Positions 12,747 to 26,247 of a stretch of 27,046 nt of DNA are shown in pieces; the stretch's first letter is position 1, and each line of letters starts with the position of its first letter. The notes under the pieces are model-generated. The model was given only the letters and a program-made list of their open reading frames with translations. It was not told where the DNA came from and did no database searches. The stretch comes from a virus: positions 1 to 27,046 of IMG/VR virus record IMGVR_UViG_3300032665_000160. One strand, 5' to 3'. A program made the translations under genes and the position numbers.

Positions 12747-13472
12747 ATGAAACCTTTGGTCACCGTCATTACGCCAACTACAGGCAATCAAGTAGTTCGG
12801 AAAGCAATCGAATCAGTCAAAAATCAAACTTACGATAACATACAACACCTAGTTGTCACAGATGGACCTTATGGTGCCGCTAAGATAATTTTAGATGATT
12901 ATCCCGAAGTTGACAAAATCAAACTCCCTTATTCAACCGGTAAAGACCAATACAATGGACATAGAATCTATGGTGCTATGACCTATATTGCTAGAGGTGA
13001 CTTCCTTTGTTTCTTAGATGAAGACAACTGGTATGAGCCTAATCATATCGAAGAACTTGTAAAAGTTATTGAGAAAGGTAATAAATGGGCATACACATTA
13101 CGTAAAATTGTTAGCCAAGAAGGTGAATATATATGTAATGATGATTGCGAATCTTTAGGGAAATGGACTTCGGTTATTAATGACCAGTTCATTGATGTTA
13201 ACTGTTATATGATACCAAGAATAGCCGCTTTAGGTTTTTCACCATACTGGTATCGTAGAGCAAGACATCCTCAAGAGCAACCAGAAGTTGATAGAATTCT
13301 ATCACCGTTTATGATGCAGAATTTCAAAGAGTTTGATTGCACATACGACTATACGGTGAATTACAGAGTTGCAAGCAGAGCAGATTCTGTACAAGCAAGT
13401 TTCTTTCAAAAAGGAAATGAATTGATGTTAAAACAATATAATGGGAAATTACCATGGCAACAAAAGACTTAA
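12747..13472 (+). CDS. Family 2-like GT-A glycosyltransferase
   Basis: The 241-residue protein has the GT2 pattern: VTVITPT at 5-11 (nucleotide-sugar binding strand), SVKNQTY helix and acceptor region, then FLDEDNWYEP with the metal-binding D91-E-D93. GT2 enzymes transfer sugars from UDP- or GDP-sugars. No membrane segment, so it should act in the cytoplasm. First gene of a six-gene glycan cassette; it starts 4 bases after the previous gene and overlaps the next by 19 bases. Acceptor unknown; virion protein glycan or host surface glycan are both possible. Confidence 0.85.
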   Translation: MKPLVTVITPTTGNQVVRKAIESVKNQTYDNIQHLVVTDGPYGAAKIILDDYPEVDKIKLPYSTGKDQYNGHRIYGAMTYIARGDFLCFLDEDNWYEPNHIEELVKVIEKGNKWAYTLRKIVSQEGEYICNDDCESLGKWTSVINDQFIDVNCYMIPRIAALGFSPYWYRRARHPQEQPEVDRILSPFMMQNFKEFDCTYDYTVNYRVASRADSVQASFFQKGNELMLKQYNGKLPWQQKT

Positions 13473-14323
13473 TAATCGGTGCATTTAAAGGTTACACTTT
13501 TCGACAAGTTGAACCTTGGGTTAAATCACTAAACGAATGTGGGTTTGAAGGTGATAAAGTAATCATCTCTATCAATTCATCCGTTGAAACAAATCAAAAA
13601 CTCCAAGATTCTGGTGTAACTGTGTTACCATCACAGACTCCTGGTAATATGATGTTTCACATGGAACGTTTCTTACACATATACGACTATCTTAAAACTC
13701 ACGGTGAAAATTATCGTTATATTCTTACCACAGATGTGCGTGATGTAATTTTTCAAACTGATCCTATGGATTATATTGCTAAAAGGATGCAAAATCCTTT
13801 TAATAAATTTATTGCTGTATCAGAATGTATTCCAATACAAAACGAACCTTGGAATAGAGATAACATTATTAAGTGTTTTAATGACTATACATACAATAAT
13901 ATTAAAAATGAAGAAGTTTTAAATGTCGGTACTCTTGCCGGCAAATCGGAATATATAAGAGACTTATGCGGTATGTTATTTCATATGTCTTCTAATCGTG
14001 CAGATTGGGTTGCAGACCAAGCCGCTTATAACGTAATGATGAATTATGAGCCATATAGAAGTCAATCTTTCGTTTCGGATTTAGATGAAGAATTTGCTTG
14101 TAATTTGCATGTGACAAATAAGCCAGACCAGATTGAACAATTTAGACCATTCTTGACATGTGGAGTACCAGAAATTACTGAAGATGCATTTGTTGTAACT
14201 GCAAAAACAGGAAGACCATATTCTATCGTTCATCAGTATGATAGAGTGCCGGAATGGAAAAAAGCAATATTGAAAAGACTCGATATTGAAGATGCTGATG
14301 AGTTTTTTACTTATAAGGTGTAG
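13454..14323 (+). CDS. GT-A-like glycosyltransferase
   Basis: The protein has 289 residues. The N-terminus (LIIGAFKGYTFRQVEPWVKSL) looks like a nucleotide-sugar domain start, and TDVRDVIFQTDP at 93-104 holds the acidic residues D94/D97 that would act as the metal-binding DXD-type motif. A later NVGTLAGKSEYIRDL segment (about 157-171) and a W-x-x-DQAAYN motif resemble the acceptor and catalytic-base region of related sugar transferases. It overlaps the GT2 gene by 19 bases and starts the next gene within 3 bases. Sure of a sugar-transferase-like fold, not of the substrate. Confidence 0.72.
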   Translation: MATKDLIIGAFKGYTFRQVEPWVKSLNECGFEGDKVIISINSSVETNQKLQDSGVTVLPSQTPGNMMFHMERFLHIYDYLKTHGENYRYILTTDVRDVIFQTDPMDYIAKRMQNPFNKFIAVSECIPIQNEPWNRDNIIKCFNDYTYNNIKNEEVLNVGTLAGKSEYIRDLCGMLFHMSSNRADWVADQAAYNVMMNYEPYRSQSFVSDLDEEFACNLHVTNKPDQIEQFRPFLTCGVPEITEDAFVVTAKTGRPYSIVHQYDRVPEWKKAILKRLDIEDADEFFTYKV

Positions 14324-14325
14324 GC

Positions 14326-15024
14326 ATGGGTATGGTTAAAGGGAGTCTAATACTCTACAAAGCACTTAATGACAACCAACTTTTAGATTTTTCTAAGAAC
14401 ATTAAAGTTGCTGATATTGGTGCACAAACGGTACACTTTGATGACCGTTCTTTTTTCGAAACGCTTTTAGAATCATTTAAACTCGACAAATCAATAGCTG
14501 AAAAATTCTCGGATGGTATGACCGCAAGAACAATGCATGAAGCAATGGGTCATACATACGAGAGTTTCGATTTAGATTTGATTGACGATAAAGTGCATAG
14601 GACAGACTTAAATACTGATAGTTGTAAACCAGAATTCAAAAGTTATTTTGACCTTGTAGTAAATTTTGGTACAACAGAACACTTGAGCGGTCAAACAAAT
14701 GCTTTTAAGTTCATGCACGATTCTTGTAAGAATGGTGGTTTTATAATTTGTACTTTGCCGTGCATTGAACCGAATCACGGATTCTTTTCTTATAGTCCAG
14801 TATTCTTTGAGTCTATGGCCCACGACAATAAATATGAGAATCTTACAATATATCTACACGATGTTGAGGGTGATGATGCCGGCAATCTTTATGAATATAC
14901 AGGAACTGTACCATTGAAAAAATGTTATATTAATGTTATAATACGTAAAATAAATGATGACGAATTTGTCGAACCTAAACAAGTTTTTAATAATGGTAGT
15001 TTTCCAATAGGCAAGGTGGCATAG
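14326..15024 (+). CDS. Class I SAM-dependent methyltransferase-like protein
   Basis: The protein has 232 residues from the ATG at 14326, with AAGGTG about 5 bases upstream; another ATG two codons later is possible. VADIGAQ at 28-34 is a motif I-like SAM-binding turn. A middle segment FDLVVNFGTTEHL (about 109-121) matches the motif IV region and GGFIICTLP (about 137-145) the motif V region of class I methyltransferases. Target unknown; in this cassette a sugar or nucleotide-sugar is a reasonable guess. It sits 1 base before the YibB-like gene. Confidence 0.72.
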   Translation: MGMVKGSLILYKALNDNQLLDFSKNIKVADIGAQTVHFDDRSFFETLLESFKLDKSIAEKFSDGMTARTMHEAMGHTYESFDLDLIDDKVHRTDLNTDSCKPEFKSYFDLVVNFGTTEHLSGQTNAFKFMHDSCKNGGFIICTLPCIEPNHGFFSYSPVFFESMAHDNKYENLTIYLHDVEGDDAGNLYEYTGTVPLKKCYINVIIRKINDDEFVEPKQVFNNGSFPIGKVA

Positions 15025-15025
15025 T

Positions 15026-15823
15026 ATGGGTAATATTTCAATAGTAACGGCTTTCTTTGATATAGGTAGAGGTGATTGGACTCCTGACAAAGGATTACCA
15101 CATTATCTACAAAGAACAACAGACACGTATATCGAAAGATTCGGTCATCTAGCAAAACTCGACAATGAGTTAGTTGTTTTCACTTCACAAGACTTGGTTG
15201 ACAAAATTAAAGAAAAATGTGCTAATAGAAGTGCAACAACACACATCATTGCAATCGACTTTCACGGACAATTTCAAGAGCAACGTGAAGTAATTAGCAA
15301 GATTCAAAAAGATCCTAATTTTCAAAAGATGATTAGCCCACAACAAGTTAAGAATCCCGAATACTGGTCTGCTGATTATGTTCTCGTCAATTATCTAAAG
15401 ACTTTCTTTGTCGAGTATGCAATCAAAGAAAATTTTGCATCTAACGATTTAGTTGCATGGATGGACTTTGGGTATTGTAGAGAAGAATCTACTCTTAACG
15501 GTAAAACGGAATGGTCTTATGATTTTACAGAAGATAAAGTTCACTTCTTCGATTATAAAGATTATAATGGACAACCAATACAGAATATTATTGCCAATAA
15601 TGACGTTCACATATTAGGTGCTAAGATTGTAGCACATAAGGACGTATGGCCTAGACTAAGAGAATTAATTAGCGGTGCATTTAAGAATCTTACAGATGCA
15701 AACCTAATTGATGATGACCAAACAATGATGTTATTAGCAACTTTGTATCAGCCGGATTTATTCGAACTACATAGAATAGTAGAGAGTGATCCATTCGTAA
15801 TGTTTAGAGAATATTGTAATTAA
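15026..15823 (+). CDS. YibB/HtrL-like protein
   Basis: The protein has 265 residues. The N-terminal IVTAFFDIGRG at 6-16 and a central WMDFGY motif (145-150) are typical of the HtrL/YibB family, found near lipopolysaccharide genes in Enterobacteria and in many phages. The family is thought to be GT-A-like, but activity is not proven. ATG at 15026 has AAGGTGG about 8 bases upstream. It lies 1 base after the methyltransferase gene and 8 bases before the next methyltransferase. Fits a glycan-modifying cassette. Confidence 0.78.
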   Translation: MGNISIVTAFFDIGRGDWTPDKGLPHYLQRTTDTYIERFGHLAKLDNELVVFTSQDLVDKIKEKCANRSATTHIIAIDFHGQFQEQREVISKIQKDPNFQKMISPQQVKNPEYWSADYVLVNYLKTFFVEYAIKENFASNDLVAWMDFGYCREESTLNGKTEWSYDFTEDKVHFFDYKDYNGQPIQNIIANNDVHILGAKIVAHKDVWPRLRELISGAFKNLTDANLIDDDQTMMLLATLYQPDLFELHRIVESDPFVMFREYCN

Positions 15824-15831
15824 GGACTAAT

Positions 15832-16389
15832 ATGACAACAAAAGATTTTTCAAAAGTGTACGTTTCAGGCGAAGGTTTACCGCAATACATCAACCAACTT
15901 GGCGAAGGTACTGTAGGACTTGAATTAGGTGTTTGGACTGGTGAAAACTTTGCAAATATACTTCAACAATGTCCTGGTATCAAGACATTATATGGTATGG
16001 ACCCATACGCACCATATCAAGACTGGAATCGAATGATTACTCAAGAAATTATTGATGATGTTAAACGTCAATCGATGGAAAATATTCATCTATCTGGTCA
16101 CGAAGATAAAGTTCAATTCTTTTTCAATACTGCCGCTGAAGGTCTTGATTTGATTCCTGATGGTTCATTAGACTTCATTTTCGTTGATGGTGACCACTCA
16201 TATGAGAACGCTAAACACGATATCACAAACTATTATTCTAAAGTTCGCTCTGGTGGCTTGTATGCTGGACATGATTTTAGTCTTCCTGGTGTAACACAAG
16301 CACTTAAAGAGTTCATTAAAGAAGCAAACATCGATCCAAAATCCTTGATGTTTACCGCTAATGACGTTTGGTTGTGGTTCAAACCATGA
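15832..16389 (+). CDS. Class I SAM-dependent methyltransferase (type 24-like)
   Basis: The 185-residue protein has GLELGVWTGENF at 29-40 as motif I, a motif II-like MDPYAPY segment, and FIFVDGDHSYE at 115-125, the acidic DGDHSYE box seen in type-24 methyltransferases of surface glycan and antibiotic gene clusters. SGGLYAGHDF (about 144-153) follows. It is probably a sugar O-methyltransferase, inferred from the motif and from its neighbours. AAGGA about 7 bases before the ATG at 15832. It overlaps the next gene by 4 bases. Confidence 0.85.
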   Translation: MTTKDFSKVYVSGEGLPQYINQLGEGTVGLELGVWTGENFANILQQCPGIKTLYGMDPYAPYQDWNRMITQEIIDDVKRQSMENIHLSGHEDKVQFFFNTAAEGLDLIPDGSLDFIFVDGDHSYENAKHDITNYYSKVRSGGLYAGHDFSLPGVTQALKEFIKEANIDPKSLMFTANDVWLWFKP

Positions 16390-17057
16390 GTTATGCCTTT
16401 GTTGTAACGTCTGCATTATGCCCCAATACGGGTGTTTTCACTAAAGAACAAAGGTATGAACAAACACTAAACACAATCAAATCAATCAGAAGTAAAGTAT
16501 CAAACTCTTTTATTTTACTTTCTGATTCTGGACCTAATCCTGTACCTGAAGAATGGATCGAACATCTAACCGAGATATGTGATGATGTATTATTCGTCAA
16601 GGATCCTACATTAGAACAACTTAATATGTATCGTATGCAGACACCTGCCGAGATTCATAATATGAAAAATGCATTGTCATATCTGAAAAATTTAAATCTT
16701 TTAGGTATCGACCGAGTATTTAAGATTACCGGTCGAGCAGAATTGACTGATGACTTCAATATTATACAATATATCTCAAATCCTGCAATCAAAGACAAAT
16801 ACGTATTCAAAAAAAGCGTAGACTCATGGATGGGAAGAGGGTTTAAATTGTATGATACACGAATCTGGTCATTCGATTATTCTATGATAGATGAGGTTAT
16901 TGCAATGCACTCTGGTGCTTTTGATACCGCTTGCAGTTCTGGATTAGACCTAGAGCATGTATATTATCAATTGATACCACCTGCAAAAGTGGTAGAAAAG
17001 GATGTCCTAGGTCTAAGATGCTACGTGGCATCTGATGGTACGGTACGTAACGATTAA
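16386..17057 (+). CDS. Putative glycosyltransferase-like protein
   Basis: The protein has 223 residues from the ATG at 16386, which overlaps the previous stop as ATGA; an upstream start at 16368 would add 6 residues but is not needed. The segment FKITGRAELTDDF at 112-124 resembles the Lys/Thr-Gly-Arg core seen in phage and virus glycosyltransferases of the WavE-like type. There is no clear DXD motif, so enzyme activity is uncertain. It is the last gene of the glycan cassette; the next gene starts after a late-type box. Family call tentative. Confidence 0.6.
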   Translation: MSYAFVVTSALCPNTGVFTKEQRYEQTLNTIKSIRSKVSNSFILLSDSGPNPVPEEWIEHLTEICDDVLFVKDPTLEQLNMYRMQTPAEIHNMKNALSYLKNLNLLGIDRVFKITGRAELTDDFNIIQYISNPAIKDKYVFKKSVDSWMGRGFKLYDTRIWSFDYSMIDEVIAMHSGAFDTACSSGLDLEHVYYQLIPPAKVVEKDVLGLRCYVASDGTVRND

Positions 17058-17113: not shown

Positions 17114-18043
17114 ATGTTATCATTCAAACAATTCATTCTAACAGAAGGTGGGAACATCAAGGCTAACGGTCATGCGGCCGAGCCTATTCAGATTCCCCAT
17201 GGTCAGCGCAAAGCAGTTCAAAAAGATATTCATGGTGTTGCTAAAGCGGTAGGAGATTCTTACCATAAAGCCCACGGTGAGCATTTGTTTGGTAAAGAGC
17301 ATAAAGCACTAAAAACTGGTTCTGCATTTGCTGGTTCTACTCATCATACAATGGATAAGAACATTAGCGATACAGAATTTCATCATGGAATGACAAAACC
17401 CGGTAAAGAACATCCTGAATCTGGTGATGTTGACTTGAAAGTACCGCATCACACATTAGATAAGTTACACGCACATTTAGACCAGCATGTCGGTAAGAAG
17501 TTCGGTCCGTATACGCTACTAGGCACAAAGAAAGGTGCTGGACAGAGACATGCTATCATGCAACATAATAAAACCAAAGCAAAGCATCAAATTGACTTTG
17601 AAGGTTCCGATTATGAGAAAGATGAGCCATCAAAAGGCGACCAGTTCACACATAGTTCTAATTGGCATGATAGAAAAGCTGGTATCAAAGGGGCTCATCA
17701 TAAGATTCTTATGAATGCCGCTGGTAGAGATAAACACGTATTTTCACCACAGTACGGTTTAGGCAATCGTGCTAACAAACTACCGCCATCAAAGCAAACG
17801 GATAGAACTAAAGACCCTAAAGAAGTGGCTAAACGTCTATTTGGTGCTAAAGCAGACCATGAGAAAATTCATTCATTCCATGGTGTCACAGACTTGATTA
17901 AAAAGCATGTTAAGCCTGAACATCATCAAGAAATCTATAATAAATTCAAAGAGAGAACTGGTAGTTCAGATGTTAAAAGTGCATTTAGTCACGAAGCCGC
18001 ACTAAATCACCTTAAGAAACATCTTGACGTACATGACGAATGA
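17114..18043 (+). CDS. His/Lys-rich nucleotidyltransferase-like protein with capsid-targeting-like N-terminus
   Basis: The protein has 309 residues. The start MLSFKQFILTEGG resembles the T4 internal protein capsid targeting sequence (MKTYQEFIAE) and has L9-T10-E11 followed by G, an (I/L)-x-E site for a gp21-type prohead protease. Residues about 85-160 carry SGDVDLKVP and then HQIDFEG, which could be the paired Asp motifs of a nucleotidyltransferase fold; related proteins in marine T4-like phages look alike. The N-terminal and linker parts are very rich in His and Lys. It starts 42 bases after a late-type box and overlaps the next gene by 4 bases. Gene sure; targeting and NTase function are inference. 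Confidence 0.62.
   Translation: MLSFKQFILTEGGNIKANGHAAEPIQIPHGQRKAVQKDIHGVAKAVGDSYHKAHGEHLFGKEHKALKTGSAFAGSTHHTMDKNISDTEFHHGMTKPGKEHPESGDVDLKVPHHTLDKLHAHLDQHVGKKFGPYTLLGTKKGAGQRHAIMQHNKTKAKHQIDFEGSDYEKDEPSKGDQFTHSSNWHDRKAGIKGAHHKILMNAAGRDKHVFSPQYGLGNRANKLPPSKQTDRTKDPKEVAKRLFGAKADHEKIHSFHGVTDLIKKHVKPEHHQEIYNKFKERTGSSDVKSAFSHEAALNHLKKHLDVHDE
17121..17134 (+). repeat. First copy of the CATTCAAACAATTC start repeat
   Basis: A 14-base sequence shared exactly at codons 3-7 of three different genes (copies at 25359 and 26066). It codes for (S/T)FKQF in each, near the N-terminus. DNA-level identity suggests selection on the peptide or recent sharing of the segment. Confidence 0.8.
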
Positions 18044-19338
18044 AAAGAACATTAAACGAATTTTTCAGAACCATATCTGAAGCCAAAACTGGTATAGTTG
18101 AGAAGTCACACTTCAAGGCTATATTTGTTACGGGCGGACCTGGTTCCGGTAAAGATATTGTAATTCGTGAGGCAATACCACACGAATCTTTTACTGAATT
18201 AAATACGATTCAGGCATTTAACTATTTGGCTGACAAGAAACGTCTTTCCGAGAAGACTTCCGATCCACGTAGAGAAGCCATTAGAAACCGTGAATGCCTT
18301 GTTATAAACGGTCCTACCGATGATTACGAACGTATGGACTACATACGTGAAGAACTCTCAGAACTTGGGTATGCAATATTACCGATTTTCGTTCGTGTTT
18401 CAAATGAAGCAAGTAAAGAAAGAAATGAAAAGTTGGCAAGAACGATTTCAGAGTCAATTAGACAAGAAAAGTGGCAAAAGTCGAATGATGTGCTTGGGAA
18501 GTTCATCCACGGTGATTGGAGTAATTCTTACAGTCAAACCATGTTATTTGAGAACGATTCTGAACTTGACAAAGTACAAGGTGAACTCAAAAGACTTAGA
18601 AAACGAATTTTTGAGTTTGTAGAAGATAGAAGTTGGTATACAATGAATGAAACAGCATATGAATGGCTAGACTCACGAAATAAGCTAGATATTAATGAAT
18701 CATTTAATTACTTTGTCGAAAAGGAAACCTTGAATGAAGGCAATAAAAAACTGGATAGTAAACACATTCAAACTAAAACCATCGGTAAATACAACCCAGG
18801 ACTTCTCGCTCCAACAACCTCAACACCAGACAATAGACCAGGTGCTAACGGCATCGGAAAAGCTGACGACCTCAAAGGGGGTACCTTCCCTAGAAAGAAC
18901 CCTAATGGATATACAATTGCCGGTGGCTCCGGAGCAGGTGCCTACGCCGCAACCGAAGAAACGCAACCCACGCTCAAAATCGCCGGTCCCCCAAAAATCA
19001 AAAAGTTCAACAAAGACGGCCAAATCGAAAAAATCCTCAAAGGCGCCAAAGACGGAAACGCAGTAAGTGGCGGTAGAAATACTTTAGGTAATGGTATGGG
19101 TGATACGTTTAGTTCACGTTCAGGACTTCAAATGGGTCTTGGAGAACACAGTTTTAGTGCTTTTAGAAAGCAGGCAGAATCAATAGATAGTCCAGGCGAG
19201 AACGCATGGGGTGTCTCTGGTGTTGCTACAGGCGGTATGGACAAAGAAGGTATGAGAACTTACAAGGATAAGGACCAGATTGAAAAAATGGCACCTACCG
19301 TAAAAAATAAAAACAAGAAAAGACTAGGAGTAGTATAA
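18040..19338 (+). CDS. P-loop kinase-like protein with long Gly/Pro/Lys tail
   Basis: The protein has 432 residues. Residues 32-39 are GGPGSGKD, a Walker A P-loop; the following region (about 45-215) fits a small kinase fold with an R-rich lid (NEASKERNEKLARTI). Polynucleotide or zeta-toxin-type kinases are alternatives. The N-terminus (MKRTLNEFFRTISEAK) has I12-S-E14 followed by A, another gp21-like site, with a NEFF stretch reminiscent of the T4 targeting peptide. Residues about 240-432 are Gly/Pro/Lys/Asn-rich linker. Codon use changes to C-ending codons between about 18800 and 19063, an odd feature (see findings). It overlaps the NTase-like gene by 4 bases and abuts the next start. Kinase call moderate. 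Confidence 0.68.
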   Translation: MKRTLNEFFRTISEAKTGIVEKSHFKAIFVTGGPGSGKDIVIREAIPHESFTELNTIQAFNYLADKKRLSEKTSDPRREAIRNRECLVINGPTDDYERMDYIREELSELGYAILPIFVRVSNEASKERNEKLARTISESIRQEKWQKSNDVLGKFIHGDWSNSYSQTMLFENDSELDKVQGELKRLRKRIFEFVEDRSWYTMNETAYEWLDSRNKLDINESFNYFVEKETLNEGNKKLDSKHIQTKTIGKYNPGLLAPTTSTPDNRPGANGIGKADDLKGGTFPRKNPNGYTIAGGSGAGAYAATEETQPTLKIAGPPKIKKFNKDGQIEKILKGAKDGNAVSGGRNTLGNGMGDTFSSRSGLQMGLGEHSFSAFRKQAESIDSPGENAWGVSGVATGGMDKEGMRTYKDKDQIEKMAPTVKNKNKKRLGVV

Positions 19339-21368
19339 TGTTCGCAAAAGACAAAGTAACCCAATCAATGTTAGATGCAGTTAATGCTGTTATCGGTGAA
19401 GCAGAAAAGAAAGCAACGGGTAAAAAGCCGGGTTGGTTAATTGATGCTGAAAAAGCCGCAGAAGCAAGAGAAGGTAAATTAAAAGAAGATGCAGAGCAAA
19501 TTGATGAGATTGATGCCAATGCTATTCTAGCTATGGCTAAAAAAGTAAGCCCTACTGCAAAAATGAGAGCATCTAGTGATGAAATGAAAAAAGACCGTGA
19601 TGAGAAAAGTGCAAAACAAGATGCACCAAAACCTCATGTACCGAAAAGTACTTTTGGTGACACGAAGGGTTATGGACAAGGACGCTACATGGGTGACTCT
19701 GTAGAAGTTACGGATGAATTGGTTGAAAGTAAAGACCAAAGATTTATCGATGCAGTTTCAAAAGTAATCAATGGTGGAAAAGGTGTTACTGTTGAAGAAG
19801 AATCATTGCAAGAGAAAAACTGGATTAAAGGTGCTATCAAGCATCCTGGTGCATTGACAGCCGCCGCTAAAAAAGCAGGCGAGTCAAATTCTGAATATGA
19901 ACAACAACATAAGCACGATTCCGGTAAAGCTGGTAAACGTGCAAGACTTGCATTAACACTAAAGAAAATGCATCACGAAGAAGTTACTAAAGAACCAGAA
20001 GGTTCTTATTCTTCTAAACGTTTTGAAACTGATGCCCAACGTATTGCACGTATGGCAAAAGAAAAAATGCAAGCTAAGAAAAAAGAAATGGCGAAAAAAG
20101 AAATGGCGAAAGAAGAAGTTGCTCTAGATGAGAAAGACGAATTGCGTGACCGTATCGGTACAAATATTGTTAACAAGAAACCAAGAGAAGGTCAAACTGA
20201 TTTAAGAAATATTCCAGCAGGAAATAGACCAGATGGTAAAAATAAGTTCTCTCAGAGTGAAAAAGATTCTCAACCAACTCGTTTGAAGAATAGCATTAAA
20301 GCATCATTAGGTAAACACACTAAACCAAATCTACCGGAAGAAGTTGAGCAAATGGATGAAGTTGAAAATGCATTTACTGCATACAAGAACAAGAGACCTA
20401 GTGAAATTGGTAGACATCTAACAAGAACACATGACTCAAAACGTCTTTCTGATACAAGCGTAATGTATACTAAGAAGCATGGAAAAGATTTAGATGCCGC
20501 TAAAGATGCCGCTAAAGATGCAGAAACAGCACACAATGCTACTGTATTCGCAAAGAAAAAAATGAATAAAGAAGATGCTGGTTTAGGCGATAACGGTACA
20601 AATGAAGAAGTCGCATTTGAAGCGAGAGATTGGGTTGTAAAAGATCCAAAAACTGGTGCTGACAAAGCATGGGGCCATGAAAGCGATTGGAGACCAGTTG
20701 CAAAACCAAAAGCACAAGGTTCCGGTAAAGCCTCAAACTTGGCTGGTAAAGCATTGCAGAAAACAAAACAAATGACTAAAGAAGATATTGGTTTAGATAC
20801 ACCAGTACCAACAAAGCCAAAGACAACTGATACTCTTGCTGGTCGCATTAAAGTTCCTAAAAACTTCCATAATCAACACGTTGATTCTAAAGTCGAATTG
20901 AAAGCGGAAGAAGCACATCCAGATGCCGCTGAAGACAAAAAACTTATCTCTAAAATGATTAAAAAAGATGATGAGAAAGAAGAAAAGAAAGATACTAAAA
21001 AAGATATCGGTCTTATCAAAAAATACATGCATAAAGAAGAGATTGAACACTTAGCAGGTAACCATGTTGAAGTACATTCTGGACATCACCAAGGTGTTGA
21101 AGGTACACTTCATGCAGTACACGGTGATATCTTTGAGATTAAGCCACACGGTGCGGAATCTGAAGAAGACCATGTATATGTACCACAGAAACATGTAAAA
21201 TCTGTTAAGTCTGTTGACGAGGCATTTCACGGACCTGAAGCGGGTTCTGGTACAGGCGATTCACCAATGGCAACTAATGATTCTAAGCCAGTAAAGTTGG
21301 CAAAATATCTTGCAGTCAAAACTGCTGATAAAATGAAGAATGAAATGCTTGGAAAGATGACTAACTAA
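19338..21368 (+). CDS. Long Lys/Glu-rich probable virion protein
   Basis: The protein has 676 residues, mostly highly charged and low-complexity, with Lys and Glu throughout. The start MFAKDKVTQSMLDAVNAVIGEAEKK is of a type I know from structural proteins of T4-like marine phages. I19-G-E21 followed by A is a possible prohead protease site. Short repeats occur: KED(A/I)GL-like units near residues 410 and 480, tandem AAKDAAKD, and a doubled KKEMAK at about 250-260. Near the C-terminus LAGNHVEVHSGHHQGVEG (about 572-589) resembles a KOW/SH3-like strand pattern. It is read without a gap after the kinase-like gene and 8 bases before the next. Structural or internal head role inferred. Confidence 0.72.
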   Translation: MFAKDKVTQSMLDAVNAVIGEAEKKATGKKPGWLIDAEKAAEAREGKLKEDAEQIDEIDANAILAMAKKVSPTAKMRASSDEMKKDRDEKSAKQDAPKPHVPKSTFGDTKGYGQGRYMGDSVEVTDELVESKDQRFIDAVSKVINGGKGVTVEEESLQEKNWIKGAIKHPGALTAAAKKAGESNSEYEQQHKHDSGKAGKRARLALTLKKMHHEEVTKEPEGSYSSKRFETDAQRIARMAKEKMQAKKKEMAKKEMAKEEVALDEKDELRDRIGTNIVNKKPREGQTDLRNIPAGNRPDGKNKFSQSEKDSQPTRLKNSIKASLGKHTKPNLPEEVEQMDEVENAFTAYKNKRPSEIGRHLTRTHDSKRLSDTSVMYTKKHGKDLDAAKDAAKDAETAHNATVFAKKKMNKEDAGLGDNGTNEEVAFEARDWVVKDPKTGADKAWGHESDWRPVAKPKAQGSGKASNLAGKALQKTKQMTKEDIGLDTPVPTKPKTTDTLAGRIKVPKNFHNQHVDSKVELKAEEAHPDAAEDKKLISKMIKKDDEKEEKKDTKKDIGLIKKYMHKEEIEHLAGNHVEVHSGHHQGVEGTLHAVHGDIFEIKPHGAESEEDHVYVPQKHVKSVKSVDEAFHGPEAGSGTGDSPMATNDSKPVKLAKYLAVKTADKMKNEMLGKMTN

Positions 21369-21376
21369 GGTTAAGC

Positions 21377-23221
21377 ATGACTGAAAAGTTTAAAAAAGTA
21401 AAAGCGTTATTGCAAAGACCGGCTCCCCCAAAGAAATTTGGTACAGACCCATGGGAGCCTTGGTCTGCAACCAATCAGGTATCTGAAAACTCTATTAAAG
21501 GACAACGTGCCGGTACGCTTGCACGTTTTCTCAAGTCTAGAGGTATTAATCCTACATTCGTTTCAAAAAACCAAAGAATTGCACATACAAAATCTGATAT
21601 GTACAAAAAATGGATGAGAGACCATATGTTCGAAGCAATTGATGTACCTGAGCAACCCGAAACTGCCGATAAAAATGCATCAGATGCACAAATGTCATAT
21701 GCTAAAAAGAATAAGAAAAAACTTCATATGTCTAAAAACATTGAAACACCACCTGGATCAATGGTACGAAAAAATATGGAATCCGTTGAACTGGATGAAG
21801 TTCTAACTAAATCTACAACTGCTGGCGAGACTATCGATGACTTTGTTCACTCAAAGAATAAGATGTTTGCCGGTGACTCTAAGGTTCAAAGAATTAAAAG
21901 AGCATTAGGTGCTTACTATAAAAAGCAGAATGAAGAGACTGGAACTAAGGAAAAGAAAAAGAAAACTTTGAATCCTGGTGGAAGTATGCCCACAACTACA
22001 AATAATAAGACAAGTTATTCTTATAATGACATGACTGAAGAAGCGGAAGACTCGATAAAAGAATCTGTTATTCGCTCAGAAACAATAGGACCATACACAC
22101 ATGAACTACATAAGACACCATGGGGATATCAAGTAAGAGTTCATGCTGGTGGAAAACAAGTTCATTCAGATATAACCAAGCCCACAGAAGAAAAAGGTCA
22201 CAAAAGTTTTGATAGTAATATTGCCTACACAAAGAAACAATTAAGAATTCACGAGCAAGGTGTGGCGGAAGGTCACGATGATTTCAAATCATCTCATCAA
22301 AATGTAGTTGCTCAAGCAAAAGCAGAACACGGCGAACCTGAAAGACATGAATACAAGTTTGATAATATGAGTGGCAGACATGGTGCTCATAACTCATATT
22401 TACATTATCCAGACAAAAAAGTTACAGTAAACACACAAATGTTCAAGCACGGTCCAGCGCACAATGTATTTGTTAATCGTAGTAAACAAGGTGTGGCGGA
22501 AGGCAAGGAAGAATTACACGCCCAACTCCAAACAATTAATCAAAGGTTAAAATTAATGAGAGGCGGTCCAGTTGGAGAACCTAATAGTATGGCTTTTGTT
22601 GAAAAACGCAAAGCATTACTAAAACAAAAAGAACAAACATTATTACAATTAAAGCAAGGTGTAGAAGAAGGTTGGGCTGTTAATAGTGACATTATTTCTG
22701 ACGAAAAGAAGGATACCAGAACTGCTTCCGAAAAAATGTCTGATTATGCTGTCAAACGACACAAAATTTACCAAGGTATTGCAGACAAACAGAAAGAGCA
22801 TATCAAAAAGTGGAATGAAGACCACAAAGATGAACCTCATCTACAGATACCGGTAAAAGAAGACATATATCAGGATGGACAATCCGCAACACAAACGGTA
22901 TTTGACATGGGTAATAATACAGACGATACTTCGCAAAGATTCAATAGAGTCAAAAATGCTATGAAAAAGAAGCATGTCAAAGAAGACACATACGATTGGG
23001 AGAAGGCTGACAAATCAGTAGCCACTCCAGGCAAAAAGCCAAAGATGGATAAATCAAATGAAAAGACTGGCGAGGCTACAACTAAACCTAAAGCCGCCGC
23101 TGTTCTATCTGGTGGTACAACTATGACGGGTGAACCAAGAGATACGATTGAGATTGACCCGTCCATGCAAGGCAGACCAGGACAAGATGGTGGTCTGCCG
23201 TCAGCTAAAACAAAAAGATAA
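21377..23221 (+). CDS. Modular QGVAEG-repeat protein, probable virion or internal head protein
   Basis: The protein has 614 residues, highly charged, with no membrane segment. A conserved module DEVLTKSTTAGETIDDF (about 140-156) and its downstream basic stretch occur in other T4-like marine phage proteins. Three short near-identical units, Q-G-V-(A/E)-E-G at residues 294-299, 371-376 and 427-432, separate domain-sized segments of 77 and 56 residues that share no obvious sequence. Each repeat ends in V-x-E followed by G, close to the (I/L)-x-E consensus of the T4 prohead protease. It stops at a GATAAATA late-type box. Function of the inserted segments unknown. Gene sure; polyprotein idea is inference. 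Confidence 0.72.
   Translation: MTEKFKKVKALLQRPAPPKKFGTDPWEPWSATNQVSENSIKGQRAGTLARFLKSRGINPTFVSKNQRIAHTKSDMYKKWMRDHMFEAIDVPEQPETADKNASDAQMSYAKKNKKKLHMSKNIETPPGSMVRKNMESVELDEVLTKSTTAGETIDDFVHSKNKMFAGDSKVQRIKRALGAYYKKQNEETGTKEKKKKTLNPGGSMPTTTNNKTSYSYNDMTEEAEDSIKESVIRSETIGPYTHELHKTPWGYQVRVHAGGKQVHSDITKPTEEKGHKSFDSNIAYTKKQLRIHEQGVAEGHDDFKSSHQNVVAQAKAEHGEPERHEYKFDNMSGRHGAHNSYLHYPDKKVTVNTQMFKHGPAHNVFVNRSKQGVAEGKEELHAQLQTINQRLKLMRGGPVGEPNSMAFVEKRKALLKQKEQTLLQLKQGVEEGWAVNSDIISDEKKDTRTASEKMSDYAVKRHKIYQGIADKQKEHIKKWNEDHKDEPHLQIPVKEDIYQDGQSATQTVFDMGNNTDDTSQRFNRVKNAMKKKHVKEDTYDWEKADKSVATPGKKPKMDKSNEKTGEATTKPKAAAVLSGGTTMTGEPRDTIEIDPSMQGRPGQDGGLPSAKTKR
22256..22272 (+). repeat. QGVAEG repeat, copy 1
   Basis: CAAGGTGTGGCGGAAGG, in frame as Q-G-V-A-E-G (residues 294-299). 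Identical to copy 2 over all 17 bases. Confidence 0.9.
22487..22503 (+). repeat. QGVAEG repeat, copy 2
   Basis: Same 17 bases as copy 1, residues 371-376, 231 bases further on and in the same frame. Confidence 0.9.
22655..22671 (+). repeat. QGVEEG repeat, copy 3 (diverged)
   Basis: CAAGGTGTAGAAGAAGG, three base changes from copies 1 and 2, giving Q-G-V-E-E-G at residues 427-432. Confidence 0.8.
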
Positions 23222-23224
23222 ATA
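23217..23224 (+). promoter_or_regulatory. T4-late-type promoter box GATAAATA
   Basis: Seven of eight positions match the late box. It overlaps the stop codon of the QGVAEG protein and lies 32 bases before the structural protein start codon, good spacing for a late promoter. Confidence 0.6.
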
Positions 23225-23256
23225 GTAAATAAACAGTTTTCTAAGGAGAAAAAAAG

Positions 23257-23967
23257 ATGTCCTCATGGGGTAATAAAGATTTTGCGAATAACGCACCAAA
23301 TTGGGCTGTAAGAACAGTACCAAACCATAATGCAAACACAACCGCAAGACCAACTGCGGCAAACGTTGCATATTTGTATCAGAACACTTCACCTAACGTA
23401 TACCAAACCGGTGTTACTGTTGGTTTATGGAATGTTTCACAGGCTGAAGAAGCAGTTGCAGTTAATGGTGTAAATCCAACTGCCGGTCCTTCACATGATG
23501 GTTGGGTAATCAAGACTGTAGGTCAAGGTGGACGTGCTGGTAGAATTCAATATGAGACTTTAGTCGTTCTGGCTAATACACCATACGAATCAGCCGCTGG
23601 CCAGAACTTGTTCCCAGATACCGCAATTACATTTGTTCAACCATCTACACTACAAAGCATTGTTCATGGTGGCGGAAATACTATCACAATTTCTGTTTCT
23701 GGTACATCTGTAATACCAGCAACAGCAACAGTAACATACTTGTGGCAGTATAACAATCAATCAGGTGGTGGTTGGAACAATGTTACAGCAAATACATCTA
23801 ATGCGGCAACAACAGGTAACACAACAGTTACTTTAGTTGTGACACCATCAGATACATCTACAAACAACTTCGTTTATCGTGTTCTTGCAAATGCGACAAA
23901 TCCTGGTGTTGTAGGTTCAAATACAACGACATTTACTTCTTCAAACTCAAGAACATTAGTGTCTTAA
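23257..23967 (+). CDS. Virion structural protein with C-terminal Ig-like domain
   Basis: The protein has 236 residues. The N-terminal part (SWGNKDFANNAPNWAV) and GGRAGRIQYETLV at 91-103 are typical of a family of structural proteins in T4-like marine phages. Residues about 128-236 are Thr/Ser/Asn-rich strands with a conserved W (about 163) and Tyr, the pattern of an immunoglobulin-like domain often displayed on phage capsids or tails. A strong AAGGAG ribosome site lies about 8 bases upstream, a late-type box precedes it and a strong terminator follows, suggesting a highly expressed single unit. Confidence 0.85.
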   Translation: MSSWGNKDFANNAPNWAVRTVPNHNANTTARPTAANVAYLYQNTSPNVYQTGVTVGLWNVSQAEEAVAVNGVNPTAGPSHDGWVIKTVGQGGRAGRIQYETLVVLANTPYESAAGQNLFPDTAITFVQPSTLQSIVHGGGNTITISVSGTSVIPATATVTYLWQYNNQSGGGWNNVTANTSNAATTGNTTVTLVVTPSDTSTNNFVYRVLANATNPGVVGSNTTTFTSSNSRTLVS

Positions 23968-23973
23968 TAAAAC

Positions 23974-23996
23974 AAGGGGCCTTGTGCCCCTTTCTT
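23974..23996 (+). terminator. Rho-independent terminator
   Basis: A perfect 7-bp stem AAGGGGC/GCCCCTT with a 5-base loop CTTGT, followed by TCTT. It lies 6 bases after the structural protein stop. The T-tract is short, so readthrough is possible. Confidence 0.85.
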
Positions 23997-24000
23997 AACT

Positions 24001-24387
24001 ATGTTTGAAAATTTGAATGAAGATAATTTTATGATGTATGCAGTTAAATGCTATACGTCTCCTAATTGTATTATGTCGGAATTTGAAAGTGATATTAAAA
24101 GAATCAAGTATCTTAAAAGACTTTTTAGACGTTATAAATCTACTAAGTCTCTTAAAGAACGATTAATTTTAAATCACATTATTTTATTGAATAACGTTTT
24201 TGGTCCTGAATCTATGTCTAGAATGTTATTCTATAAGATAGATGAGAGAGATTATGATGTGCTTAAGACATTCTTAGCGTATTTGAATTTGTTACCGGAT
24301 TTCATCTATGGTGTAAATGGTAAAAACATCATAGTGTCAAATATACCATACGAGGAAAGTGTTGCAGAAATACTAAGTCAAATATGA
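24001..24387 (+). CDS. Conserved hypothetical protein of T4-like marine phages
   Basis: The protein has 128 residues. The start MFENLNEDNFMMYAVK and core motif RLILNHIILLNNVFG (about 53-67) match a family I know from these phages; it is helical and without a known function. The ATG at 24001 lies only 4 bases after the terminator hairpin run and has no Shine-Dalgarno, so translation may need readthrough or a leaderless start. It overlaps the next gene by 4 bases (ATGA-type junction). Confidence 0.82.
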   Translation: MFENLNEDNFMMYAVKCYTSPNCIMSEFESDIKRIKYLKRLFRRYKSTKSLKERLILNHIILLNNVFGPESMSRMLFYKIDERDYDVLKTFLAYLNLLPDFIYGVNGKNIIVSNIPYEESVAEILSQI

Positions 24388-25355
24388 TAAATTTTAAAAA
24401 TTTTAACGCAGAAGATTATATTGTTGAGGCAAAAAGTGGCACTAGCTATAGTGATGAGCACGCTCATGCGAGAATATGGAATCATATGACCGGTCTCGGT
24501 ATTGCTCACGACAAAGCAAAGATGCAAAAAGAATTTGCAAAAGCGAAGACAGATAAAACACATCCTTTGCATTTCTCTAAAGCCCCCGATGAAGGTTTTG
24601 TTGGTGGTAAAAAAACGAATGCCGCAAAAGAGAGTTACCATCAAGAACATGAAAATGCAATTCACACAGTACACGCATTAGCAAATCATCCAGATTTCAA
24701 AGAAGCAATAAAAAAGAAACACAAAGCAGTTGTTATGGGGAATCAAAAGGGTGAAGTTTCTGATACGTGGAAGAAATATGGTGCCACGAAGGGCGGTACA
24801 TCAAAATCAGACGTTGCAATTAAAGATCCTAATGATGAACACCATCACGGTCTAAAACTTTCTATGAAGAAAGGTGGTGGTTCTCAATTAATGTCTGGTG
24901 GACCTGAGGAAAATGCCGCAGTACATCACCATGCCGCACATGAGATGTTAAGTAAGCATCCAAGTTATAAAGACTTACCAGAAAAAAGAAAAACAAAGAT
25001 TCATCAAGAAATTATGAACCATATACATCATGTTTCTTCTCAATTAAATGCAATGAAAAATGCATCTAAGGAAAAACAAACTCAACACAGAGAAATAGCA
25101 CAACATCATCTTGACACGATTCACAATCAACATCCTGCATTAAATCATTATGTTAGAAAAGAAGCCGCAACTGGTAGAGGTAAATTCGGTGAAGGTTCTG
25201 CACATGCGGCATCTTATCTAGTAAAATCCGCTTCACACGGTGGTGATGCAGAAGTGAAACATGTAGATAAACATGATTGGTCAGGACCAAAACCAAGAGC
25301 CGCACTTCCAAAAGGTGAAGGACGTTCAGGAAATGTTAAATCGGACGAGAAATGA
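24384..25355 (+). CDS. His-rich, possible nuclease-fold virion protein
   Basis: The protein has 323 residues. The start MINFKNFNAEDYIVEA has FKNF like the FKQF start of neighbours and an I13-V-E15 followed by A, a possible prohead protease site. The middle (about 140-175) has TSKSDVAIKD and GLKLSMKKGGGSQLMSGGPEE; in related marine phage proteins this block is conserved, and the D then strand K pattern could fit a PD-(D/E)XK-type nuclease core, but key residues are not certain. Very His-rich (HHVSS, HHHAAHE). It ends in a 4-base ATGA overlap with the next gene. Gene sure; nuclease fold tentative. Confidence 0.6.
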   Translation: MINFKNFNAEDYIVEAKSGTSYSDEHAHARIWNHMTGLGIAHDKAKMQKEFAKAKTDKTHPLHFSKAPDEGFVGGKKTNAAKESYHQEHENAIHTVHALANHPDFKEAIKKKHKAVVMGNQKGEVSDTWKKYGATKGGTSKSDVAIKDPNDEHHHGLKLSMKKGGGSQLMSGGPEENAAVHHHAAHEMLSKHPSYKDLPEKRKTKIHQEIMNHIHHVSSQLNAMKNASKEKQTQHREIAQHHLDTIHNQHPALNHYVRKEAATGRGKFGEGSAHAASYLVKSASHGGDAEVKHVDKHDWSGPKPRAALPKGEGRSGNVKSDEK

Positions 25356-26059
25356 AATCATTCAAACAATTCTGCAAAGAAGTAAAAGAACCTACTGGTG
25401 AATTAAAAAAGGCTTGCTGGACCGGGTATACGGCAGTTGGTACAAAAAAGAAAAATGGTAAAACAGTACCTAACTGTGTGCCAGAAGAAGTTGAATTATC
25501 CGAAGAAGATACTAAAGTCAAACATGTTCATCACAATGGTGAGAAGATTGGCGAAACTGGTGTAGATTCAGAAGCATCTCCAGGTAATGGTAAGTGGTTT
25601 GCTAAACACTATAAATCAAAAATGGATTCTGTTGGGTTTGATTCTAGAAAAGAAGCAGAAGCAGAAGTTCGTGCTGCTCATGGGATTAAAGAACAGGCCT
25701 GTTGGTCTGGTTATACTGCTGTTGGCACCAAAGAGAAAAATGGTAGAACAGTACCTAACTGTGTGCCAGAAGAATTCATGCCAGAATCTGAGGCATGGGA
25801 AAGAAAAGAAGGAAAGAATCCTACAGGGGGTTTAAACTCAAAAGGTGTTGCATCTTATAATAGAGCAAACCCAGGTCATCATCTACAGACGGCAGTAACA
25901 ACAAAGCCATCGAAATTAAAACCTGATAGCAAAGCCGCAAATCGTAGAAAATCATTTTGTGCTAGAATGTCTGGTATGAAAAAACGTTTGACTTCTGCAA
26001 AGACTGCAAACGATCCAGATTCACGTATCAACAAATCTTTAAGAAAGTGGAACTGTTAA
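25352..26059 (+). CDS. Virion-type protein with duplicated Cys/Trp module and basic C-terminal domain
   Basis: The protein has 235 residues. The start MKSFKQFCKE shares the FKQF box. A 26-residue module beginning ACW(T/S)GYTAVGTK and ending NCVPEE occurs twice, at residues 21-46 and 116-141, each with two Cys. Between them is a segment of about 69 residues, possibly a passenger domain. The C-terminal about 80 residues (NPTGGLNSKG to RKWNC) include SFCARMSGMKKRLTSAK, a basic domain seen in other T4-like marine phage structural proteins. It overlaps its neighbours by 4 bases and 1 base. Structural role inferred. Confidence 0.72.
   Translation: MKSFKQFCKEVKEPTGELKKACWTGYTAVGTKKKNGKTVPNCVPEEVELSEEDTKVKHVHHNGEKIGETGVDSEASPGNGKWFAKHYKSKMDSVGFDSRKEAEAEVRAAHGIKEQACWSGYTAVGTKEKNGRTVPNCVPEEFMPESEAWERKEGKNPTGGLNSKGVASYNRANPGHHLQTAVTTKPSKLKPDSKAANRRKSFCARMSGMKKRLTSAKTANDPDSRINKSLRKWNC
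25359..25372 (+). repeat. Second copy of the CATTCAAACAATTC start repeat
   Basis: Same 14 bases as 17121-17134, coding for SFKQF at the start of the duplicated-module protein. Confidence 0.8.
25412..25489 (+). repeat. ACWTGYTAVGTK module, copy 1
   Basis: Codes for the first of two 26-residue Cys/Trp modules in the same protein; copy 2 at 25697-25774 differs at only a few residues (T/S, K/E, K/R). Confidence 0.85.
25697..25774 (+). repeat. ACWSGYTAVGTK module, copy 2
   Basis: In-frame second copy of the module, residues 116-141. The DNA has diverged by silent changes in its 5' half but is near-identical in its 3' half (ACAGTACCTAACTGTGTGCC in both). Confidence 0.85.
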
Positions 26060-26247
26060 TGTTCACATTCAAACAATTCAGAAAAATTCAGGAAGATGGT
26101 GCTGTTGTAGCAGGTCCTACTAATGTGACTGCTGGTGTTGCAGGCATCGGTGCTCCTGGTCCTGGTAACTTTGCAGAACCTGGTGGTAAGAAAAAGAAAC
26201 CTCCTGTAATGGGACATATGTTTGCGAGAAAACCACCAAAGATATAA
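26059..26247 (+). CDS. Small conserved phage protein with FKQF start
   Basis: The protein has 62 residues from ATG at 26059, which shares one base with the previous stop (TAATG). A start at 26047 would add 4 residues. MFTFKQFRKIQEDG carries the FKQF box and an I10-Q-E12 followed by D, another possible protease site. The rest is Gly/Pro/Lys-rich (GPTNVTAGVAGIG, GGKKKKPP), a type of small protein I know from T4-like marine phages. Possibly a virion protein. Confidence 0.75.
   Translation: MFTFKQFRKIQEDGAVVAGPTNVTAGVAGIGAPGPGNFAEPGGKKKKPPVMGHMFARKPPKI
26066..26079 (+). repeat. Third copy of the CATTCAAACAATTC start repeat
   Basis: Same 14 bases as at 17121 and 25359, coding for TFKQF at the start of the 62-residue protein. 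Confidence 0.8.

What the first reader, a model, noticed from the sequence alone, without database searches (positions are those of the whole stretch)
17114..26247. Shared FKQF-type N-termini resemble T4 capsid targeting sequences on unrelated proteins
Proteins starting at 17114, 25352 and 26059 open with MxxFKQF, and the one at 24384 with MINFKNF. The three FKQF starts share 14 identical bases (CATTCAAACAATTC) although the rest of the proteins are unrelated. T4 internal proteins share MKTYQEFIAE, which sends them into the prohead and is cut by gp21 after (I/L)-x-E. Here LTE|G (17114), ISE|A (18040), IVE|A (24384), and IQE|D (26059) sit 11-15 residues from the start. Together this suggests a set of proteins packaged inside the capsid and perhaps injected.
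Basis: partly seen in the sequence, partly recalled or inferred. Interest (0 to 1): 0.78.

Follow-up and report, generated by a model that had tools for sequence, protein, structure and literature searches.

The report
Capsid-packaging tags on phage proteins
Several unrelated proteins of this environmental T4-like phage share a short starting sequence that matches the known T4 "pack me into the head" tag, and virus-particle data from two related phages indicate that such tags mark enzymes carried inside the particle and probably injected into the host.

Summary
ORFs at 17114, 25352 and 26059 begin MxxFKQF, 24384 begins MINFKNF, and an exact 14-mer occurs three times. The bodies are mutually unrelated.

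The tag is at protein level: close relatives keep FKQF with other codons. It matches T4's capsid targeting sequence (CTS). T4 IPI itself starts MKTFKEF, IPII/IPIII start MKTYQEF, and the only other T4 match is gp61.1 (MKTFKEFIKE).

A degenerate pattern for this start gives at least 120 IMG/VR stretches. A permuted control gives 3, all inside ORFs, and 85,000 prokaryote genomes give 13. The tagged proteins fall into at least 81 unrelated body families, including ADP-ribosyltransferases and cytidylyltransferases. Their bodies are basic and depleted of gp21 sites.

gp21 protease is present in the two longest close relatives. Published virion proteomes agree: in S-CREM2 all three strict matches (SAM hydrolase, kinase, cytidylyltransferase) are virion proteins, and the looser pattern gives 6 of 7 (p = 0.0005).

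The packaging interpretation is therefore supported for 17114, 24384, 25352 and 26059. It is weak for 18040. Cleavage and injection are inferred for this phage, not shown.

Extra: gp61.1-type proteins, including 26059, resemble the N-terminal arm of their own phage's mature capsid protein.

The parts
17114..18043 (+). Tagged protein 1 (309 aa, pI 9.5); leader MLSFKQFILTE = 17114-17146, predicted gp21 cut E11|G12GN; body with nucleotidyltransferase-like signature (GS..., GDVDL, QIDF)
   Evidence: F4, K5, Q6, F7, E11, G12, G13, N14 invariant in relatives down to 69% identity; CP220 homologue has ILE|GGN and Vibrio Va1 homologue starts M-GGN; no L/I-x-E in the body; AF2 topology and weak Foldseek hits to TUT7
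17121..17134 (+). 14-mer CATTCAAACAATTC, copy 1
18040..19338 (+). P-loop (kinase/AAA-like) protein with weak CTS-like leader MKRTLNEFFRTISE|A (18040-18081); least certain member
   Evidence: 11 L/I-x-E in body, so not depleted
19338..21368 (+). Basic low-complexity protein without the leader; neighbour in the cluster
   Evidence: pI 8.9; position matches MS-detected virion ORFs of S-SCSM1 between gp41 and gp61
21377..23221 (+). Basic low-complexity protein with repeated QGV(A/E)EG motifs, without the leader
23257..23967 (+). Head-protein-like ORF within the cluster
   Evidence: phrog_613 head protein, E 8e-6
24384..25355 (+). Tagged protein 2 (323 aa, pI 9.4); leader MINFKNFNAEDYIVE = 24384-24428, predicted cut E15|A16
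   Evidence: P-RSM6 homologue MKSFVSFKSEAKLLE|G; at the same place G003 has an unrelated body with leader MKSFKQFINE
25352..26059 (+). Tagged protein 3 (235 aa, pI 9.5); leader MKSFKQFCKE = 25352-25381; two CWxGYxxVGTKxKNG repeats and a C-terminal DUF6321
   Evidence: PF19846 E 9e-21; tagged homologues L150, L101, L247; leaderless DUF6321 proteins in podoviruses
25359..25372 (+). 14-mer, copy 2
26059..26247 (+). Tagged protein 4 (62 aa, pI 10.5), counterpart of T4 gp61.1; leader MFTFKQFRKIQE = 26059-26094, predicted cut E12|D13
   Evidence: N-terminal match to T4 61.1; primase gp61 follows in G003
26066..26079 (+). 14-mer, copy 3
26113..26139 (+). GPTNVTAGV in protein 4, resembling GPTNVTGGV in the N-terminal arm of the relative's major capsid protein

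Best explanation
The shared starts are capsid targeting sequences of the T4 internal-protein type. During prohead assembly the leader (aromatic at residue 4, F at 7, a hydrophobic-x-E a few residues on) docks each tagged protein into the scaffold core. The prohead protease gp21 then cuts after the E, releasing the basic body into the maturing head. The body stays with the packaged DNA and is probably ejected into the host with it. Shown here: the leader, its conservation, its spread over many unrelated cargoes, gp21 in close relatives, depletion of gp21 sites in cargo bodies, and co-occurrence of such leaders with virion detection in two cultured relatives. Inferred for this phage: packaging, cleavage, injection and the activity of each cargo.
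For: T4 itself: starts of the form M-K-T-[FY]-x-E-F are IPI (MKTFKEFTSTTTPVSTITE|ATLTSE), IPII, IPIII (annotated internal virion proteins) and gp61.1; residues 4 and 7 of the CTS direct targeting, 8 and 10 processing, and gp21 cuts after L/I-x-E (PMC9026906). Breadth: at least 120 IMG/VR stretches (capped) for M-K-[ST]-F-K-[QE]-F-hyd-x-E against 3 for a permuted control, all internal, and 13 in genome contigs; 192 tagged proteins in 81 body families. E at residue 9 or 10 in 44 of 56 non-redundant proteins found without requiring it. Bodies: L/I-x-E 0.66 of shuffled expectation against 1.24 in length-matched untagged proteins of the same loci (0 of 5,000 draws); median pI 9.65 against 5.92. Protease: PF03420 in G003 and G005, in 10 of 22 tagged contigs (9 over the curated cut-off) and in all 8 cultured T4-like phages searched. 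Virion proteomes: S-CREM2 strict pattern 3 of 3 virion (p = 0.01), loose 6 of 7 (p = 0.0005); S-SCSM1 NMNAT MKSFLQFLKE|A is a virion protein. Modularity: Va1 homologue of 17114 starts M-GGN, exactly after the predicted cut; DUF6321 proteins of podoviruses lack the leader. Same gp41-to-gp61 position as S-SCSM1 virion ORFs 89-93, 95 and 97.
Against: No virion data for this phage. S-SCSM1 ORF30 (MKTFKQFMSES) was not detected in its virions, so the tag is not a perfect predictor. Virion detection may be carry-over, as the S-CREM2 authors say. 18040 has many internal gp21-type sites; 25352 lacks a canonical L/I at P3. Several cyanophages (S-PM2, P-RSM6) and HTVC008M have no strict match, and 12 of 22 tagged contigs show no gp21 (fragments). 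The S-CREM2 and S-SCSM1 tests rest on few hits.
Confidence: 0.85

Rival explanations
1. The leader is a prohead or scaffold docking tag of capsid-morphogenesis proteins: tagged proteins help assembly inside the head but are not injected effectors.
For: DUF6321 genes sit beside scaffold and capsid genes in podoviruses; 26059 resembles the capsid protein's own arm; a phrog_613 head protein lies in the cluster.
Against: Many tagged cargoes are enzymes with no assembly role (ADP-ribosyltransferase, cytidylyltransferase, SAM hydrolase, kinase); T4 IPI, IPIII and Alt act in the host.
Confidence: 0.3
2. The shared 5' ends are traces of recent recombination or gene duplication at DNA level without a targeting role.
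For: Exact 14-mer in three genes; P about 1e-3 given the peptide.
Against: Relatives keep the peptide with other codons and G003 has no exact 14-mer; the same peptide start is found on 81 unrelated families, with E at a fixed distance.
Confidence: 0.04
3. The N-terminal peptide binds another early-infection or assembly partner (for example the membrane initiation complex) and the E site is not a cleavage site.
For: Several leaders lack L/I at P3 (25352 CKE; many FQE or FTE starts).
Against: Bodies are depleted of L/I-x-E relative to neighbouring proteins; the only L/I-x-E in 17114 and in T4 IPI, IPII, IPIII and 61.1 is in the leader.
Confidence: 0.08

Closest known systems
T4 capsid targeting sequence (CTS) of internal proteins IPI, IPII, IPIII
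   Same: N-terminal position, aromatic at 4, F at 7, hydrophobic-x-E then A/G/S/D, basic bodies, few or no gp21-type sites outside the leader, gp21 protease in relatives
   Different: FK[QE]F rather than YQEF (though T4 IPI is FKEF); far more cargo families; E at residue 9-15; bodies unrelated to the T4 IPs
T4 gp61.1
   Same: Small basic protein with MKTFKEFIKE|D leader, located before primase gp61, as 26059
   Different: Function unknown in T4; bodies share only a short pattern
T4 Alt (packaged ADP-ribosyltransferase)
   Same: Same kind of cargo: tagged ART-PolyVal and ADPrib_exo_Tox proteins occur among tagged environmental proteins
   Different: None in this window; Alt itself was not compared here
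Virion-associated enzymes of cyanophages (NMNAT/cytidylyltransferase, SAM hydrolase, APH/ChoK kinase)
   Same: Mass-spectrometry-detected in virions and carrying a MKxFxxFLxE leader
   Different: The original papers do not discuss a targeting leader in the passages read here and leave packaging open
Inner-body or ejection proteins of phiKZ and SPN3US
   Same: Packaged, cleaved after E by a gp21-type protease (PMC9026906)
   Different: Different propeptides; no short FKxF tag was compared here

Membership tests
T4-type capsid targeting sequence | Leader at the extreme N-terminus of otherwise unrelated proteins | tested here: met
T4-type capsid targeting sequence | Aromatic at residue 4 and F at residue 7 (targeting residues in IPIII) | tested here: met
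   17114, 24384, 25352 and 26059 have F4 and F7; 18040 does not keep the spacing
T4-type capsid targeting sequence | gp21 site L/I-x-E at the end of the leader | tested here: inconclusive
   Present at 17114, 18040, 24384 and 26059; 25352 has CKE
T4-type capsid targeting sequence | gp21-type prohead protease encoded by the phage | tested here: met
   In close relatives G003 and G005; the window itself is only a fragment
T4-type capsid targeting sequence | Cargo body spared by gp21 (few internal L/I-x-E) | tested here: inconclusive
   Met for 17114, 24384 and 26059 and for the family at large; not met for 18040; 25352 has 3
T4-type capsid targeting sequence | Tagged protein found in purified virions | tested here: inconclusive
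   Met for related phages S-CREM2 (3 of 3) and S-SCSM1 (1 of 2); no data for this phage
T4-type capsid targeting sequence | Leader removed in the mature virion; leader sufficient to package a foreign protein | not testable with these tools
   Needs N-terminal mass spectrometry and fusion experiments
T4 gp61.1 | Small tagged protein immediately upstream of primase gp61 | tested here: inconclusive
   G003: 3034 lies upstream of primase at 6617 with about eight small ORFs between; the window ends before primase. In T4, 61.1 is directly next to 61
T4 gp61.1 | Sequence homology of the body | tested here: inconclusive
   hhalign 92% probability but over only 18 columns, mainly the leader
Nucleotidyltransferase superfamily (17114 body) | GS...DxD...D motif and fold | tested here: inconclusive
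   Motif-like residues conserved; AF2 mean pLDDT 49; Foldseek best hits TUT7 at E 0.03

The most novel reading that the evidence does not exclude
The FK[QE]F leader marks a large, mostly undescribed repertoire of enzymes that T4-like phages worldwide carry in their heads and inject. One of them, gp61.1, is a small protein in many T4-like phages that imitates the N-terminal arm of the phage's own mature capsid protein and evolves along with it, including in laboratory T4.
Probability: 0.5. Interest if true: 0.87.

Novelty: new member of a known kind. Interest (0 to 1): 0.72.

Why it matters
Which phage proteins enter the host with the DNA is usually found only by virion proteomics. If this leader is a reliable packaging tag across T4-like phages, injected cargo can be predicted from sequence, in uncultured phages too. 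It would explain why cyanophage virions contain NMNAT/cytidylyltransferase, SAM hydrolase and kinases, and it predicts a previously unremarked internal protein (gp61.1) in T4 itself, where the claim can be tested easily.

Tried and rejected
The search for related loci with the 24384 protein found no relatives. PDB sequence searches with 17114 and 24384 gave nothing useful. AlphaFold2 of 24384 was uninformative (pLDDT 46); that of 17114 poor (pLDDT 49). A PD-(D/E)XK nuclease reading of 24384 was considered from motif inspection only and is not claimed. tblastn of 26059 against cultured phages found nothing; the gp61.1 link came from leader, position and intermediates. A first count of E positions on loci L214 onward was biased against hyd8-x-E10 because loci shared with the earlier scan had been reused; it was redone on the listed scan rows. 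The 14-base DNA identity was considered as a recombination mark and rejected as the main explanation. L246 (an HK97-type capsid protein starting MKTFKQFLES) is probably a chance match. S-SCSM1 alone gives no significant enrichment.
Full report
Observation. The window is a 27,046-base virus fragment with T4-type gp43, UvsX and gp41. FKQF at residues 4-7 of three of about 32 starts has a probability near 1e-12 by composition. The DNA identity itself is less remarkable: given the peptide and the codon usage it has a probability near 1e-3, and close relatives keep the peptide with other codons. The peptide is what is conserved: in relatives of 17114 down to 69% identity, F4, K5, Q6, F7 and E-G-G-N are invariant while residues between vary and one is deleted.

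The T4 comparison. In the T4 genome the starts of the form M-K-T-[FY]-x-E-F are ipII and ipIII (MKTYQEFIAE|A), ipI (MKTFKEFTSTTTPVSTITE|ATLTSE) and gene 61.1 (MKTFKEFIKE|D). The first three are annotated internal virion proteins. So the F-K-x-F form is already used by T4, with the presumed cut site as far as residue 19 in IPI, which covers the spread of 10-15 residues seen here. According to a review of Black's work (PMC9026906), residues 4 and 7 of the CTS direct targeting, 8 and 10 processing, gp21 cuts after L/I-x-E, and CTS-fused foreign proteins are packaged and delivered.

Breadth. The same codons in another order gave 3, all one 13-residue tail inside longer frames. One genome for each of about 85,000 prokaryote species gave 13, several of them chance or phage-like. 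With a second scan that did not require the E, 192 tagged proteins fell into 81 body families at BLASTP E 1e-3; single contigs carry up to four different tagged proteins (L090). In the unbiased rows, E stands at residue 9 or 10 in 44 of 56 non-redundant proteins, against 4 to 8 of 56 at later pairs of positions. Pfam recognises among 60 representatives ADP-ribosyltransferase-type families (ART-PolyVal E 1e-23, ADPrib_exo_Tox, DUF3990), cytidylyltransferase, methyltransferase and a lytic transglycosylase domain; PHROGs adds more cytidyltransferases and an endonuclease VII.

Cargo bodies look protected from gp21. Tagged bodies contain 51 L/I-x-E triplets where shuffled bodies contain 77 (ratio 0.66); length-matched untagged proteins from the same loci have a ratio of 1.24, and none of 5,000 matched draws was as low. 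T4 IPI, IPII, IPIII and gp61.1 each have exactly one strict L/I-x-E counted from the leader. Tagged bodies are also basic (median pI 9.65 against 5.92), as the T4 internal proteins are said to be; all window proteins of the cluster have pI 8.9-10.5. Within the window, 17114 and 26059 have no such site in the body, 24384 one, 25352 three, and 18040 eleven; 18040 is therefore the doubtful member.

Protease. gp21 (PF03420) is present in the near-full-length relative G003 (170 kb) and in G005; in G003 it lies next to scaffold and major capsid genes. It was also found in 10 of 22 further tagged contigs (one of them below the curated cut-off) and in all eight cultured T4-like phages searched.

Independent virion data. 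Two T4-like cyanophages have published virion proteomes. In S-CREM2 (PMC10665884, Table 3, 52 proteins) the strict pattern matches three ORFs in the genome and all three are virion proteins: SAM hydrolase (MKDFDSFLEE), APH/ChoK kinase (GTG start, MKRFDAFLTE) and cytidylyltransferase (MKNFSSFLTE|A); Fisher p = 0.01. The looser pattern gives 6 of 7 in virions, p = 0.0005; the looser pattern was written after seeing some of these N-termini, so its p-value is optimistic. The virion-detected Cas9-like nuclease has RFASFMAE|A near its N-terminus. In S-SCSM1 (PMC9602691) the virion NMNAT starts MKSFLQFLKE|A, but ORF30, MKTFKQFMSES, was not detected. Over 13 genomes the pattern M-K-x-[FY]-x-x-F-hyd-x-E had 14 hits against none for the reversed pattern. 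The S-SCSM1 virion ORFs 89, 90, 91, 92, 93, 95 and 97 lie between gp41/mazG and primase gp61, the position of the window's cluster: G003 continues from 3034 to primase at 6617. A cytidylyltransferase was also found in the virion proteome of S-SZBM1 (PMC9146016); its N-terminus was not read here.

Modularity. The Vibrio Va1 homologue of 17114 has no leader and begins M-GGN, exactly at the predicted mature N-terminus; the Campylobacter CP220 homologue has ILE|GGN. DUF6321, the C-terminal domain of 25352, occurs without the leader in podoviruses, next to scaffold and capsid genes. At the position of 24384 the relative G003 has an unrelated body behind MKSFKQFINE. In cyanophages the same body (VNISGDFNGNLY) follows MKTFKQFMSE in one phage and MKSYNEFISE in another, linking the FKQF and YQEF forms.

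Most likely mechanism. The leader docks the protein into the prohead core (inferred from T4), gp21 cuts after the E (inferred; site conservation and body depletion support it), and the basic body is kept with the DNA and ejected (inferred from T4 IPs and Alt; IPI and IPIII act in the host). For 17114 a nucleotidyltransferase-like enzyme is possible but weakly supported. 25352 is a DUF6321 head-associated protein.

An unexpected addition. T4 gp61.1 resembles, right after its leader, residues 67-93 of gp23, the stretch just behind the gp21 cut of the capsid protein (score 69, best in the T4 proteome, 0 of 500 shuffles). In Syn9, S-CREM2, S-SCSM1 and G003 as well, the best genome-wide match to the phage's own capsid-protein arm is a gp61.1-type ORF; S-CREM2 ORF160 and S-SCSM1 ORF97 are virion proteins. 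The matrix of mimic against arm is highest with the own phage for T4, Syn9, S-CREM2 and G003, and second highest for S-SCSM1. In G003 and for window 26059 the similarity is short and weak (GPTNVTxGV; 3 of 500 shuffles reach it). None was found in S-PM2, HTVC008M or G010. Many records already label gp61.1 as a putative capsid protein; no paper describing the mimicry was found in the few searches made, and the library is incomplete.

Verdict. In kind this is the T4 CTS system; what is new is its reach, the cargo list, the support from existing virion proteomes and the gp61.1 observation.

Noticed in passing
26059-26247; T4 gene 61.1; S-CREM2 ORF160; S-SCSM1 ORF97; Syn9 154414-154950: gp61.1-type proteins resemble the N-terminal arm of their own phage's mature major capsid protein, right behind the gp21 site; strong in T4, Syn9, S-CREM2 and S-SCSM1, weak in G003 and the window.
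   Followed up: partly
L322-L325 (RB43, Aeromonas 65, ZZ1, Vibrio V07 gp61.1): In these phages the gp61.1 tail is fused to a larger N-terminal domain (about 100 aa where the full length is visible) instead of the short T4 leader, with the junction at an E like the T4 cut site.
   Followed up: partly
21377-23221: Repeated QGVAEG/QGVEEG motifs separate segments of about 55-80 residues, as if several modules were strung together with protease-like sites.
   Followed up: no
25352-26059: Two copies of a CWxGYxxVGTKxKNGxxVPNCVPEE module; the same cysteine-containing module recurs in many tagged or DUF6321 proteins of other phages.
   Followed up: no
L289, L291 (podoviruses P-SCSP1i, HTVC131P): Short DUF6321 proteins sit beside scaffold and capsid genes in T7-like marine phages, suggesting a head role for this uncharacterised domain.
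   Followed up: partly
12747-17057: A block of sugar-transferase and methyltransferase-like genes lies between gp41 and the tagged cluster.
   Followed up: no
L090: One 14-kb viral contig carries four different tagged ORFs within about 3 kb.
   Followed up: no
S-CREM2 ORF12 (OR473000, 7704-10313, minus strand): A virion-detected Cas9-like nuclease has a CTS-like RFASFMAE|A near its N-terminus; the annotated start may be too far upstream.
   Followed up: no
L246 4567-5838: An HK97-type capsid protein begins MKTFKQFLES; probably a chance match to the pattern.
   Followed up: no
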